DNA of 38,416 nt from Nocardiopsis sp. MG754419. Its GTDB lineage: Bacteria > Actinomycetota > Actinomycetes > Streptosporangiales > Streptosporangiaceae. The stretch is taken from the NCBI RefSeq assembly GCF_018207095.1, contig NZ_QOCZ01000076.1:1-38416 (forward strand). The letters are read 5' to 3'. The position numbers were made by a program, and so were the translations under genes. Position 1 is the stretch's first letter. Each line of letters starts with the position of its first letter. Of the stretch, positions 847 through 4,885 are shown in pieces. Below the pieces are notes generated by a model. That model did not search any database, had not been told where the DNA came from, and saw only the letters and a program-made list of their open reading frames with translations.

Positions 847-862
847 AGATCCTATAGGATCT
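847..862. promoter_or_regulatory. Perfect 16-bp palindrome, probable GntR operator
   Basis: AGATCCTATAGGATCT is an exact inverted repeat in the divergent gap between the GntR gene (start 790) and the sugar operon (start 959). Size, symmetry and position fit an FCD-type GntR dimer site. The A/T content stands out from the surrounding GC-rich DNA. That it is bound by the adjacent regulator is inferred. Confidence 0.7.
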
Positions 863-958
863 GTGATTCCTGGCCCGGCGAAGGCCGCGTTCCGCCCTGC
901 GGAGCGGGGTCCGCGGCGGGTCCACAGGGCCCCTGAGGACCGACCCCCGGAGACGACG

Positions 959-1930
959 ATGCCCCACACCGCGCAGGACTGGCCGATCGGTGCCGCGCTC
1001 CTGCAGTTCCCCGACACCACGCCGGACGGTGTTCCGATCCAGGACGCGCCCGCCACCGAGTGGTCCCGGGTCCTGCACGAAGTGGCCGCCGAGGGGTTCG
1101 ACCACGTGGACCTCACCGACGGCTGGTTGCGCCCCGGCGACCTGTCGAGCGAACGCCTGCACACGCTGGTCCGCACCCTGAAGACCCACGAACTCGGCGT
1201 CTCCGCGATCTCCGTGGTCCGCCGCAGCGTCATCGACCCCGACCCGGACACGGCCCGGAGTCACCTGGACTACCTGCTGCGTACGGTCGACGTCGCCGCC
1301 GAGCTCGGCACCACTGTGGTCTGTGCGGGCCTGCACCGACCGCTCACCGAGGCCCAGCGTCGGGCGGTGTGGTTCTGGCACGAGCCGGGCGCCACCGACC
1401 CGGTGGGCGACGAACGCACCTGGGCCCTGGCGGTCGAACGCCTGCGCGCCGTGGGCGAACGCGCCGCGCGCAACGGCCTGCGGCTGTCCCTGGAGATGTA
1501 CGAGGACACCTACCTCGGTACGCCCGAGAGCGCCGTCCGCCTGGTCCGCGACATCGGACTCGACAACGTCGGCCTCAACCCGGACATCGGCAACCTGGTG
1601 CGCCTGCACCGGCCGACGCCGCATTGGGAGGACCTGCTGCGCCCGGTCCTGCCCTACATCGACTACTGGCACGTGAAGAACTACCACCGCGACTTCGACC
1701 CCGCGACCGGCGCCTACTTCACGGTGCCCGCACCGCTGGAGGGCGGTGTCATCGACTACCGGCGGGCGTTCGAACTCGCTCTGCGGGCGGGTTTCGACGG
1801 ACCGATCTGCACCGAGCACTACGGGGGCGACGGCCTGGGGGTGTCCGCGCGCAACCGCGACTACCTGCGCCGGATCCTGGCCGTCAAGCTCCCCGCCGTC
1901 GAGGCCGACCGAACGGAGGGCCGGGCATGA
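959..1930 (+). CDS. Sugar phosphate isomerase/epimerase, TIM barrel (EryC- or OiaC-like)
   Basis: This 323-aa protein belongs to the xylose-isomerase-like TIM-barrel (AP endonuclease 2) superfamily. The four usual metal ligands can be placed: Glu179 (LSLEMYED), Asp209 (NPDIGN), His238 (WHVKNYH) and Glu286 (CTEHYGG). In known tetrose pathways this fold serves as the D-erythrulose-1-phosphate 3-epimerase EryC, and in apionate catabolism as the 3-oxo-isoapionate decarboxylase OiaC, which yields L-erythrulose. Either role fits the three downstream genes; the sequence alone does not decide. ATG 959 is chosen because GGAGA lies 8 nt upstream, and longer in-frame extensions would run over the operator and the divergent regulator. 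The stop overlaps the next start (ATGA), so translation is coupled. Confidence 0.85.
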   Translation: MPHTAQDWPIGAALLQFPDTTPDGVPIQDAPATEWSRVLHEVAAEGFDHVDLTDGWLRPGDLSSERLHTLVRTLKTHELGVSAISVVRRSVIDPDPDTARSHLDYLLRTVDVAAELGTTVVCAGLHRPLTEAQRRAVWFWHEPGATDPVGDERTWALAVERLRAVGERAARNGLRLSLEMYEDTYLGTPESAVRLVRDIGLDNVGLNPDIGNLVRLHRPTPHWEDLLRPVLPYIDYWHVKNYHRDFDPATGAYFTVPAPLEGGVIDYRRAFELALRAGFDGPICTEHYGGDGLGVSARNRDYLRRILAVKLPAVEADRTEGRA

Positions 1931-3651: not shown

Positions 3652-4121
3652 TGCGCGTCGTCGTCGGTTCCGACATCGCGGGCTTCGACTACAAGGAGGC
3701 GTTCAAGAACGACCTCACCGCCAACGCGGAGGTGGCGGAGGTGATCGACGTCGGTGTGGCCTCCCACCAGGACACCGACTATCCGCACGTGGCGGTCGAG
3801 GCGGCGCGCCTGGTCGCGGACGGTCGGGCCGACCGCGCGGTCCTCGTCTGCGGCACCGGGCTCGGCGTGGCCATCGCCGCCAACAAGGTGCCGGGCGTAC
3901 GGGCGGTCACCGCCCACGACTCCTTCTCGGTCGAACGGTCCGTCCTGTCCAACGACGCCCAGGTGCTCTGCCTGGGGCAGCGGGTCGTGGGCCTGGAACT
4001 GGGCCGGCGTCTGGTCCGGGAGTGGCTCACCTACACCTTCGACACCTCCTCGCCCTCTGCGGAGAAGGTGCGGGCGCTCTGCTCCTACGAGCCGACGTCC
4101 CCGGGGACGGAGGAGGGGTGA
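3651..4121 (+). CDS. RpiB/LacAB family isomerase, probable D-erythrulose-4-phosphate isomerase
   Basis: This is a 156-aa ribose-5-phosphate isomerase B family protein. The active-site Cys67 is in VCGTGLG, the anion-hole segment AIAANKVPGVRA follows, and His89 (AHDSFSVERS) matches the ring-opening His region. Position 9 is Ile in GSDIAGF, where classical RpiB has His (SDHAG), so it is probably not a housekeeping pentose isomerase. RpiB homologues EryI and DerI convert D-erythrulose 4-phosphate to D-erythrose 4-phosphate, which fits the neighbours. A strong AGGAGG at about 3638-3643 precedes ATG 3651. The gene overlaps the kinase by one base and the next gene by four bases (GTGA). Confidence 0.88.
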   Translation: MRVVVGSDIAGFDYKEAFKNDLTANAEVAEVIDVGVASHQDTDYPHVAVEAARLVADGRADRAVLVCGTGLGVAIAANKVPGVRAVTAHDSFSVERSVLSNDAQVLCLGQRVVGLELGRRLVREWLTYTFDTSSPSAEKVRALCSYEPTSPGTEEG

Positions 4122-4885
4122 GGCCACTGTGGATCGGCACCGGGTTCAAGATGACCAAGACCCGGGCCCAGGCCGTCGCCTACGCGCGGCGGTTGCGCGC
4201 CGACCTCGACCCGGGCGTCGCGGGCGTGCGTCCCTTCGTGCTGCCCCCGGCCACGGCACTGGCCGAGGTGTCCGAGGTCCTCGACGGTGGACCGGTCCTG
4301 ACCGGCGCGCAGAACGCGCACTGGGAGGACGAGGGCGCCTGGACCGGTGAGCTGTCGGTGCCCCAGGTGGCCGACGCCGGTGCGCGCGTCGTCGAGATCG
4401 GTCACTCCGAACGGCGGGAGCACTTCGGCGAGACGGACGAGACCGTGCGTCTGAAGGCGCGCGCCACCCTGCGCCACGGGTTGGTCCCGTTGGTGTGCTG
4501 TGGCGAGGACGCCGCGGTGTTCGCGGCGGGCGGTTCGGTGGACCACGTGCTCCGTCAGGTGCACGCCGCGCTCGACGGCCTGCCCGAGGGCCCCGACGGG
4601 CTCGGCCGGGTCCTGGTCGCCTACGAGCCGATCTGGGCGATCGGGGAGCGTGGGCGTCCACCCCGCCCGGAGGAGGTGGCCGACGTCCACGCGGCCCTGG
4701 CCGCCGTGTGGGGCGACCGCGTCGCGGCGATCCTGTACGGGGGTTCGGTGACCACCGACAACGCCGCCGACCTCCTCCACATCCCCGGTGTGGGCGGACT
4801 GTTCGTGGGGCGCGCCGCGTGGGACGTGGAGGGCTACCTTCGGCTCCTGGACATCGCCAGGCAGCGCGTCGGCGCGATGACCTGA
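4118..4885 (+). CDS. Triosephosphate isomerase paralogue, probable L-erythrulose-1-phosphate isomerase
   Basis: This 255-aa TIM-family enzyme retains the catalytic Lys11 (GTGFKM), His96 (EIGHSERR) and Glu170 (AYEPIWAIG), plus the C-terminal phosphate loop (LYGGSV, LFVGRAAW). The N-terminal NxK signature of true triosephosphate isomerase (GNWKMN) is changed to GFK, and the flexible loop after Glu170 reads GERGRPP instead of the usual IGTGK-type sequence. Such changes mark the tetrulose-specific paralogues EryH and LerI, which move the carbonyl between L-erythrulose 1-phosphate and D-erythrulose 4-phosphate. The start is GTG 4118, overlapping the RpiB stop, with GGAGG just upstream inside that gene. 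It is the last gene of the operon; a strong hairpin follows 5 bases after the stop. Confidence 0.87.
   Translation: MRPLWIGTGFKMTKTRAQAVAYARRLRADLDPGVAGVRPFVLPPATALAEVSEVLDGGPVLTGAQNAHWEDEGAWTGELSVPQVADAGARVVEIGHSERREHFGETDETVRLKARATLRHGLVPLVCCGEDAAVFAAGGSVDHVLRQVHAALDGLPEGPDGLGRVLVAYEPIWAIGERGRPPRPEEVADVHAALAAVWGDRVAAILYGGSVTTDNAADLLHIPGVGGLFVGRAAWDVEGYLRLLDIARQRVGAMT

What the first reader, a model, noticed from the sequence alone, without database searches (positions are those of the whole stretch)
847..4885. A compact operon that may convert D- and L-erythrulose to D-erythrose 4-phosphate
Seen: four overlapping genes encode an EryC/OiaC-like TIM-barrel enzyme, a DhaK-DhaL kinase, an RpiB-family isomerase and a TIM paralogue. 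Known: LerK/DerK kinases act on erythrulose, EryC epimerises erythrulose 1-phosphate, EryH/LerI and EryI/DerI lead to D-erythrose 4-phosphate, and OiaC makes L-erythrulose from 3-oxo-isoapionate. Inference: with an EryC-like first enzyme, one kinase could feed both erythrulose enantiomers into a single route. With an OiaC-like first enzyme, this is the tail of apionate degradation. No dehydrogenase or transporter is in the window, so the entry substrate is open.
Basis: partly seen in the sequence, partly recalled or inferred. Interest (0 to 1): 0.7.

Follow-up and report, generated by a model that had tools for sequence, protein, structure and literature searches.

The report
Sugar-acid regulon feeding erythrulose-phosphate pathway
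This is one arm of a gene set that likely lets some bacteria eat a still unidentified sugar acid by importing it, stripping off CO2 to make the four-carbon sugar erythrulose and turning that into a central metabolite; its first enzyme belongs to a family that has a solved structure whose title names no function.

Summary
The four genes are real and overlap (959-4885). The first enzyme falls in neither the EryC nor the OiaC clade but in a third family (PDB 5tnv). The window's left edge is a contig end. Contig C40 begins with what stands there in relatives: a tripartite carboxylate transporter (TctCBA) and a PdxA-like dehydrogenase that has changed residues PdxA uses to hold its phosphorylated substrate. 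The same genes accompany the first enzyme in other actinobacteria and on Sinorhizobium pSymB. The core of the palindrome at 847-862 recurs before the first enzyme in 74 of 80 loci, and before the transporter/dehydrogenase operon in 13 of 16, so the two operons look like one regulon. Most likely: sugar acid in, oxidised to a 3-oxo acid, decarboxylated to erythrulose, phosphorylated, isomerised to erythrose 4-phosphate. The substrate, and whether the first enzyme is a decarboxylase or an epimerase, are open.

The parts
38..790 (-). GntR/FCD-family transcriptional regulator, divergent from the operon
   Evidence: Pfam FCD 90.5 bits and GntR 50.2 bits; a match to this or an Arthrobacter FCD regulator at 60 bits or more lies within the fetched stretch in 80 of 87 first-enzyme loci
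847..862 (.). Predicted operator AGATCCTATAGGATCT, perfect palindrome upstream of the first gene
   Evidence: Core ATCCTATAGGAT with at most 2 mismatches upstream of the first-enzyme gene in 74 of 80 actinobacterial loci, against 48 of 3127 other 480-bp windows of the same loci and 9 of 1600 shuffles; only exact copy in the 6.4 Mb draft genome
959..1930 (+). First enzyme ('XI'): metal-type TIM barrel of the PDB 5tnv family; proposed 3-oxo sugar-acid decarboxylase (function inferred)
1927..3651 (+). DhaK-DhaL fused ATP-type kinase; proposed erythrulose kinase (LerK-like)
   Evidence: NCBIfam PRK14479 671 bits, cut-off 492; glycerone kinase equivalog not reached, 343 against 575; DhaK half 60% and DhaL half 50% identical to the two pieces of the kinase of the OiaC/ApnO module
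3651..4121 (+). RpiB-family isomerase; [quoted passage not shown]
   Evidence: 70% identical to the RpiB of the OiaC/ApnO module, 35% to the genome's third RpiB; TIGR02133 205 bits, cut-off 168; Rhizobium DerI equivalog not reached, 141 against 240
4118..4885 (+). TIM paralogue; [quoted passage not shown]
   Evidence: 46-51% identical to four EryH-type TIMs and the OiaX-cluster TIM, 38% to the TIM of this genome that has canonical motifs; shares GT-x-[FW]KM, a loop AIG-x-x-G-x-P one residue longer than canonical AIGTG, and GLF[IV]GR-x-AW with EryH, where E. coli TpiA has GNWK and GALVGG

Best explanation
The window holds one arm of a two-operon regulon that likely degrades a sugar acid through erythrulose to D-erythrose 4-phosphate. 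Shown: in this genome a tctCBA-pdxA-like operon begins at the very edge of contig C40, cut inside tctC, which matches its place left of the regulator in relatives; in most such relatives the same operator precedes both operons. Inferred: the TctCBA transporter imports a (probably five-carbon) sugar acid. The PdxA-like dehydrogenase oxidises its C3 hydroxyl with NAD, giving a 3-oxo acid; in other bacteria a 3-hydroxyacyl-CoA-dehydrogenase-like or a threonate-dehydrogenase-like enzyme appears to take this step. The first enzyme (959-1930), a metal-dependent TIM barrel, removes CO2 to leave erythrulose. [quoted passage not shown] The GntR/FCD protein would repress both operons by binding ATCCTATAGGAT until the acid or an intermediate is present.
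For: Left arm in this genome: truncated TctC at C40:3-710, then TctB, TctA and PdxA-like 2871-3884. PdxA-like at 75% identity or more in 5 of 40 genus genomes (the rest 38% or less), TctC at 82% or more in the same 5 of 40, one of which supplied the query (the rest 33% or less over long matches), and the first enzyme at 79-84% in the same 5 of the 37 genus genomes searched for it. Same gene set on S. meliloti pSymB, Pararhizobium, Shinella and Paracoccus plasmids. Operator in 74 of 80 loci; a second copy between the regulator and the tct or pdxA operon in 13 of 16 actinobacterial loci of this type, and two copies before tctC in a fourteenth. The transporter types identified are acid transporters or closest to them: TctCBA, GntP, and an MFS whose best model is the D-galactonate transporter (273 bits, under its cut-off of 395). 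The dehydrogenase types beside it are PdxA-like (22 of 87 loci), 3HCDH-like (54 of 87) and threonate-dehydrogenase-like (5 loci read). PdxA-likes from 10 of these clusters keep three metal His and Lys274 but have H136 to E, T137 to L/I, N283 to T and R292 to I/L, 10 of 10. Trunk: RpiB 70% and DhaK 60% identical to those of the OiaC/ApnO module of the same genome; TIMs of two clades, each also found in an erythrulose-phosphate cluster, serve these loci. LerI and DerI turning L-erythrulose 1-phosphate into erythrose 4-phosphate: passages of PMC10733421.
Confidence: 0.48

Rival explanations
1. Same regulon and trunk, but the PdxA-like enzyme itself oxidises and decarboxylates the acid to D-erythrulose, and the first enzyme is an unphosphorylated ketose 3-epimerase that turns D- into L-erythrulose for the kinase.
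Against: In Arthrobacter relatives and Quadrisphaera the partner is a 3HCDH-like enzyme, a family that oxidises without decarboxylating (recalled), so a decarboxylase is still needed there unless loss of CO2 is spontaneous. The in-genome parallel module pairs a dehydrogenase with OiaC. Invariant R88, R215, K240 and R244 lie at or just after strand ends by the model's secondary structure, where TIM-barrel active sites lie, which suits an anionic substrate.
Confidence: 0.25
2. A tetronate-to-dihydroxyacetone route: the PdxA-like enzyme makes dihydroxyacetone and CO2 from a C4 acid, the DhaK-DhaL kinase makes DHAP and the TIM is an ordinary triosephosphate isomerase.
For: DhaK-DhaL kinases are classically dihydroxyacetone kinases (recalled); the TIM passes the NCBIfam triosephosphate isomerase model, 328 against 293; the S. 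meliloti, Pararhizobium and Shinella clusters stop at the kinase; OtnK/OtnC tetronate genes lie nearby in a few loci.
Against: Leaves the first enzyme and RpiB without a role. The TIM shares loop features with EryH, not with canonical TIM, and the genome has another TIM with canonical motifs. The RpiB is of the type found with OiaC/ApnO.
Confidence: 0.13
3. Tail of D-apionate degradation, with the first enzyme as OiaC.
For: Distant profile similarity to OiaC (hhalign probability 96.5%, E 7e-10); same downstream families as the OiaC cluster of Pantoea.
Against: An OiaC and ApnO pair with its own kinase, RpiB and TIM is on contigs C145/C455 of this genome; ApnO gave nothing better than E 0.04 in the other four first-enzyme genomes of the genus, one of them 84% complete; 0 of 87 loci have ApnO or OiaC within the fetched stretch.
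Confidence: 0.04
4. One reading: the first enzyme epimerises erythrulose 1-phosphate so that one kinase serves both erythrulose enantiomers.
For: Same broad Pfam family as EryC.
Against: No significant similarity to EryC by BLAST, HMM or profile-profile comparison; no FGGY kinase beside it in the four plasmid loci whose annotation was read; acid-type transporters accompany it.
Confidence: 0.03

Closest known systems
OiaC/ApnO branch of D-apionate degradation with LerK, LerI and DerI (pathway recalled, Carter et al. 2018, paper not held; cluster seen on Pantoea pPAT9B04, and on G000 C145/C455)
   Same: Dehydrogenase plus metal-type TIM barrel feeding a DhaK-DhaL kinase, a TIM paralogue and an RpiB; FCD regulator beside the kinase gene in this genome's copy
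   Different: Entry pair is PdxA-like plus a 5tnv-family enzyme instead of ApnO plus OiaC; TctCBA transporter instead of GntP; TIM of another clade
Erythritol catabolism eryABC-eryH-eryI (rhizobial-type loci L139, L140, L143; gene names assigned here by order and family)
   Same: EryH-like TIM and EryI-like RpiB leading to D-erythrose 4-phosphate
   Different: FGGY kinase and GlpD-like dehydrogenase there; first enzyme has no significant match to EryC; acid-type, not sugar ABC, transporter
L-threitol/erythritol route with LerK, LerI and DerI (described in passages of PMC10733421, which cites Huang 2015 on Mycobacterium smegmatis)
   Same: Kinase, TIM and RpiB families (family names partly recalled)
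   Different: Entry by a polyol dehydrogenase there; here by a hydroxy-acid-type dehydrogenase and a 5tnv-family enzyme
PDB 5tnv, xylose isomerase-like TIM barrel protein of Mycobacterium smegmatis with Mg2+
   Different: The entry title assigns no function
PdxA2, D-threonate 4-phosphate dehydrogenase
   Same: PdxA family and metal ligands
   Different: Four substrate-contact residues replaced, so an unphosphorylated substrate is expected

Membership tests
OiaC (3-oxo-isoapionate decarboxylase) | Sequence falls within the OiaC clade | tested here: not met
   Separate clades (OiaC 6 rows 100/99, XI 8 rows 95/98 support) in a 22-row tree with long branches flagged; OiaC set defined by Pantoea L149 and homologues, 5 of 120 listed named 3-oxoisoapionate decarboxylase by a source
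OiaC (3-oxo-isoapionate decarboxylase) | Encoded with ApnO | tested here: not met
   0 of 87 loci within the fetched stretch; the genome's ApnO lies on C455 beside another TIM barrel, its OiaC
OiaC (3-oxo-isoapionate decarboxylase) | Decarboxylates 3-oxo-isoapionate | not testable with these tools
   Needs an assay
EryC (erythrulose 1-phosphate 3-epimerase) | Sequence similarity to EryC | tested here: not met
   Best BLAST E 0.047 against three EryC; hhalign probability 1.4%
EryC (erythrulose 1-phosphate 3-epimerase) | Within an eryA-eryB locus | tested here: inconclusive
   No FGGY kinase or GlpD-like gene in the annotation tables of four plasmid loci; the own genome was not searched for eryA or eryB
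5tnv family (no assigned function) | Sequence and fold match over full length | tested here: met
LerI/EryH-type TIM | Shares the loop features of EryH TIMs | tested here: met
   Loop motifs as in EryH, distinct from E. coli TpiA and the own-genome TIM with canonical motifs
LerI/EryH-type TIM | Falls inside the EryH clade | tested here: inconclusive
   Own clade of 5 XI-cluster TIMs (95/95) beside a clade of 5 EryH/OiaX TIMs (97/97) and the canonical pair; the order of these three is unresolved in an unrooted 17-row tree
DerI-type RpiB | Passes the Rhizobium DerI equivalog NF051858 | tested here: not met
   140.9 bits against 240
DerI-type RpiB | Close to the RpiB of a known type of erythrulose-phosphate module | tested here: met
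   70% identical to the RpiB of the OiaC/ApnO module, 35% to the third RpiB of the genome
LerK-type kinase | Fused DhaK-DhaL kinase | tested here: met
   Dak1 339 bits, Dak2 140 bits; PRK14479 671 bits
LerK-type kinase | Phosphorylates L-erythrulose | not testable with these tools
   Needs an assay
PdxA / PdxA2 (4-phosphate substrates) | Substrate-contact residues H136, T137, N283, R292 of E. coli PdxA (roles recalled) | tested here: not met
   Changed in 10 of 10 cluster-linked PdxA-likes aligned; H136, T137 and R292 kept in E. coli PdxA, 2HI1 and 3 of 3 paralogues from the genus, N283 in 2 of those 3

The most novel reading that the evidence does not exclude
A pathway with no counterpart in the papers I could search: bacteria eat C5 or 2-carboxy-C5 sugar acids, such as the L-xylonate, L-lyxonate or 2-carboxy-L-pentonate left when vitamin C breaks down, by oxidation at C3 and loss of CO2 to L-erythrulose. 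The 5tnv family would be a new class of 3-oxo-pentonate decarboxylase, and three unrelated dehydrogenase families would have been recruited to the same first step. Tetronate (threonate-type) genes beside some of these clusters would handle the C4 half of the same breakdown mixture.
Probability: 0.15. Interest if true: 0.78.

Novelty: new variant of a known kind. Interest (0 to 1): 0.6.

Why it matters
It gives a testable function to a large orphan enzyme family (2591 homologues at E 1e-20 or better among the 7999 best-matching candidates that were scored) whose structure was released in 2016, and links it to a regulon found in actinobacteria and in S. meliloti, a genetically tractable model. 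It would add another entry into the erythrulose-phosphate trunk, next to erythritol/threitol and apionate, and may point to the fate of vitamin C breakdown acids in soil. It also shows one genome keeping two parallel modules with the same trunk families and different entries.

Tried and rejected

Co-occurrence with OtnK/OtnC/SAF (DRL-like) tetronate genes: OtnK in 5 and SAF in 4 of 87 loci; it spans Paracoccus, Nocardiopsis and Streptomyces, but is too rare to build on.

Counts that lean on sampling: the 80 actinobacterial loci are the best 80 of 502. 48 of the 87 loci share one pattern, mostly Arthrobacter relatives, S. meliloti appears twice (L111, L130), several contigs are short, and presence was called by one-HSP score thresholds, so the counts are lower bounds. 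Eleven of 87 loci showed neither a PdxA-like nor a 3HCDH-like gene by that test; four of these (L049, L051, L053, L093) have a threonate-dehydrogenase-like gene next to GntP, and L040 also has one (read; L049, L053 and L040 were scanned against NCBIfam and stay below the equivalog cut-off). The other six (L041, L048, L062, L071, L099, L103) were not followed up for a dehydrogenase. The operator was not found upstream of the first enzyme in 6 of 80 loci, nor in the six alphaproteobacterial plasmid loci; in four of those, searched whole with up to 3 mismatches, no hit fell between the regulator and pdxA or the first enzyme. The genome's one other near-operator site (C53, one mismatch) was not read.

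Literature: searches in the open library listed no paper on this gene set that I recognised (listings only, apart from passages read in PMC10733421, PMC11747546, PMC6225978 and PMC11066805). Three papers looked up by DOIs from memory, meant to be Zhang 2016, Barbier 2014 and Carter 2018, are not held; Huang 2015 was not looked up. Their content is recalled.
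Full report
What is there. The window is an entire contig (C448, 38,416 bases) of a 6.4 Mb, 474-contig draft. The best named relative at this locus is Nocardiopsis prasina, 83% identical in the first enzyme (which may leave out the genome itself). Four genes overlap head to tail: 959-1930, 1927-3651, 3651-4121 and 4118-4885. A GntR/FCD regulator, 38-790, is divergent.

The left neighbours exist, on another contig. 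In N. prasina, N. coralli, Streptomyces jeddahensis and Prauserella flavalba the regulator is followed on its left by TctC, TctB, TctA and a PdxA-like gene (Pfam run on the S. jeddahensis four). In this genome, contig C40 begins inside tctC (from about residue 87) and continues with tctB, tctA and the pdxA-like gene. The window ends 37 bases beyond the regulator, so the break most likely lies between the two; I infer the junction and did not join it. The PdxA-like gene (75-77% identity to the S. jeddahensis one), the TctC (82% or more to the N. coralli one) and the first enzyme (79-84%) occur in the same five genomes of the genus: 5 of 40 for PdxA and TctC, 5 of the 37 searched for the first enzyme.

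One regulon. ATCCTATAGGAT with up to two mismatches lies upstream of the first-enzyme gene in 74 of 80 actinobacterial loci, against 48 of 3127 other 480-bp windows of the same loci (some of which hold the second site) and 9 of 1600 shuffles. In 13 of 16 actinobacterial loci that carry the PdxA-like and Tct genes, a second copy stands between the regulator and the divergent tct (10) or pdxA (3) operon; in a fourteenth (L078) two copies precede tctC; L043 and L046 have none there. In this genome the window copy is the only exact match and one other site has one mismatch; an expected second copy would fall into the assembly gap. The operator was not found in the alphaproteobacterial clusters.

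The trunk. The same genome holds a second module on contigs C145 and C455: GntR/FCD regulator and DhaK at a contig end, then DhaL, RpiB, TIM, OiaC, ApnO and GntP. OiaC was recognised through a Pantoea cluster where a TIM barrel adjoins ApnO and by homologues that a source names 3-oxoisoapionate decarboxylase (5 of 120 listed). ApnO was recognised by PF16896 and KARI-like matches and by its place beside annotated oiaX in R. etli; the enzyme name for this family is recalled. The window RpiB is 70% identical to that module's RpiB and 35% to the genome's third one; DhaK is 60% identical. The window TIM shares loop features with EryH and the OiaX-cluster TIM and not with E. coli TpiA or the C429 TIM of this genome, which has the canonical motifs. 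Of the 66 loci where a TIM was found, 52 match an Arthrobacter TIM (L050) better and 14 the window's; in the tree L050 groups with the TIM of the Pantoea OiaC cluster and with this genome's C455 TIM. So two TIM clades, each also at home in an erythrulose-phosphate cluster, fill one slot. LerI and DerI making erythrose 4-phosphate from L-erythrulose 1-phosphate is described in passages of PMC10733421.

The dehydrogenase. PdxA-likes from ten of these clusters keep H166, H211, H266 and K274 of E. coli PdxA but have H136 to E, T137 to L or I, N283 to T and R292 to I or L, 10 of 10. H136, T137 and R292 are kept in E. coli PdxA, in 2HI1 and in 3 of 3 paralogues from the genus, N283 in two of those three. 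These positions contact the substrate in PdxA (recalled), so an unphosphorylated acid is likely. In four Streptomyces/Goodfellowiella loci a threonate-dehydrogenase-like gene (NF043037 223 and 219 bits in the two scanned, cut-off 350) follows GntP.

Distribution. Relatives on plasmids: 105 records, 97 of them covering at least 80% of the query, 75 of the 105 Sinorhizobium. On S. meliloti pSymB, Pararhizobium and Shinella the order is regulator, PdxA-like, TctCBA, first enzyme, kinase; in Paracoccus the first enzyme and kinase come before PdxA-like and TctCBA. RpiB and TIM were not found within the fetched stretch in any of the six plasmid loci. I presume, and did not test, that these hosts supply EryH/EryI-like enzymes from elsewhere.

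Substrate. Not determined. A C5 acid oxidised at C3 would leave erythrulose after loss of CO2 (chemistry, inferred). L-xylonate, L-lyxonate and 2-carboxy-L-pentonate arise when vitamin C breaks down (passages of PMC11066805 and, for the 2-carboxy acid, PMC6225978) and fit; nothing here proves them.

Verdict.

Noticed in passing
L154 (G000 contig C455) 44-5239 with L156 (contig C145) 1-1905: A D-apionate-type module in the same genome: GntR/FCD regulator, DhaK and DhaL, RpiB, TIM, OiaC, ApnO, GntP, apparently split by an assembly gap in the kinase gene.
   Followed up: yes
L112 17042-20359; right of the TIM gene in L031 and L036: A DRL/SAF-domain oxidoreductase with 3-oxo-tetronate kinase (OtnK, equivalog met) and 3-oxo-tetronate 4-phosphate decarboxylase (OtnC, equivalog met) next to the regulon in Paracoccus; similar genes beside it in Nocardiopsis and Streptomyces. 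The role of the DRL-like enzyme is unexplained.
   Followed up: partly
L049 14798-15727, L053 14978-15928, L040 1843-2730: Threonate-dehydrogenase-like (HIBADH family) genes near first-enzyme homologues, a third dehydrogenase type for the same slot; L040 also has a four-carbon acid sugar kinase (SBD_N/NBD_C) and an SDR upstream.
   Followed up: partly
window 6639-8221: Lrp/AsnC regulator divergent from an AzlC-AzlD pair, an ordinary-looking amino-acid export locus.
   Followed up: no
window 8242-9099: DUF1989 protein of unknown function on the minus strand.
   Followed up: no
G000 C53:4841-4852: The only other site in the genome within one mismatch of the operator; its neighbours were not read and it may be chance.
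   Followed up: no
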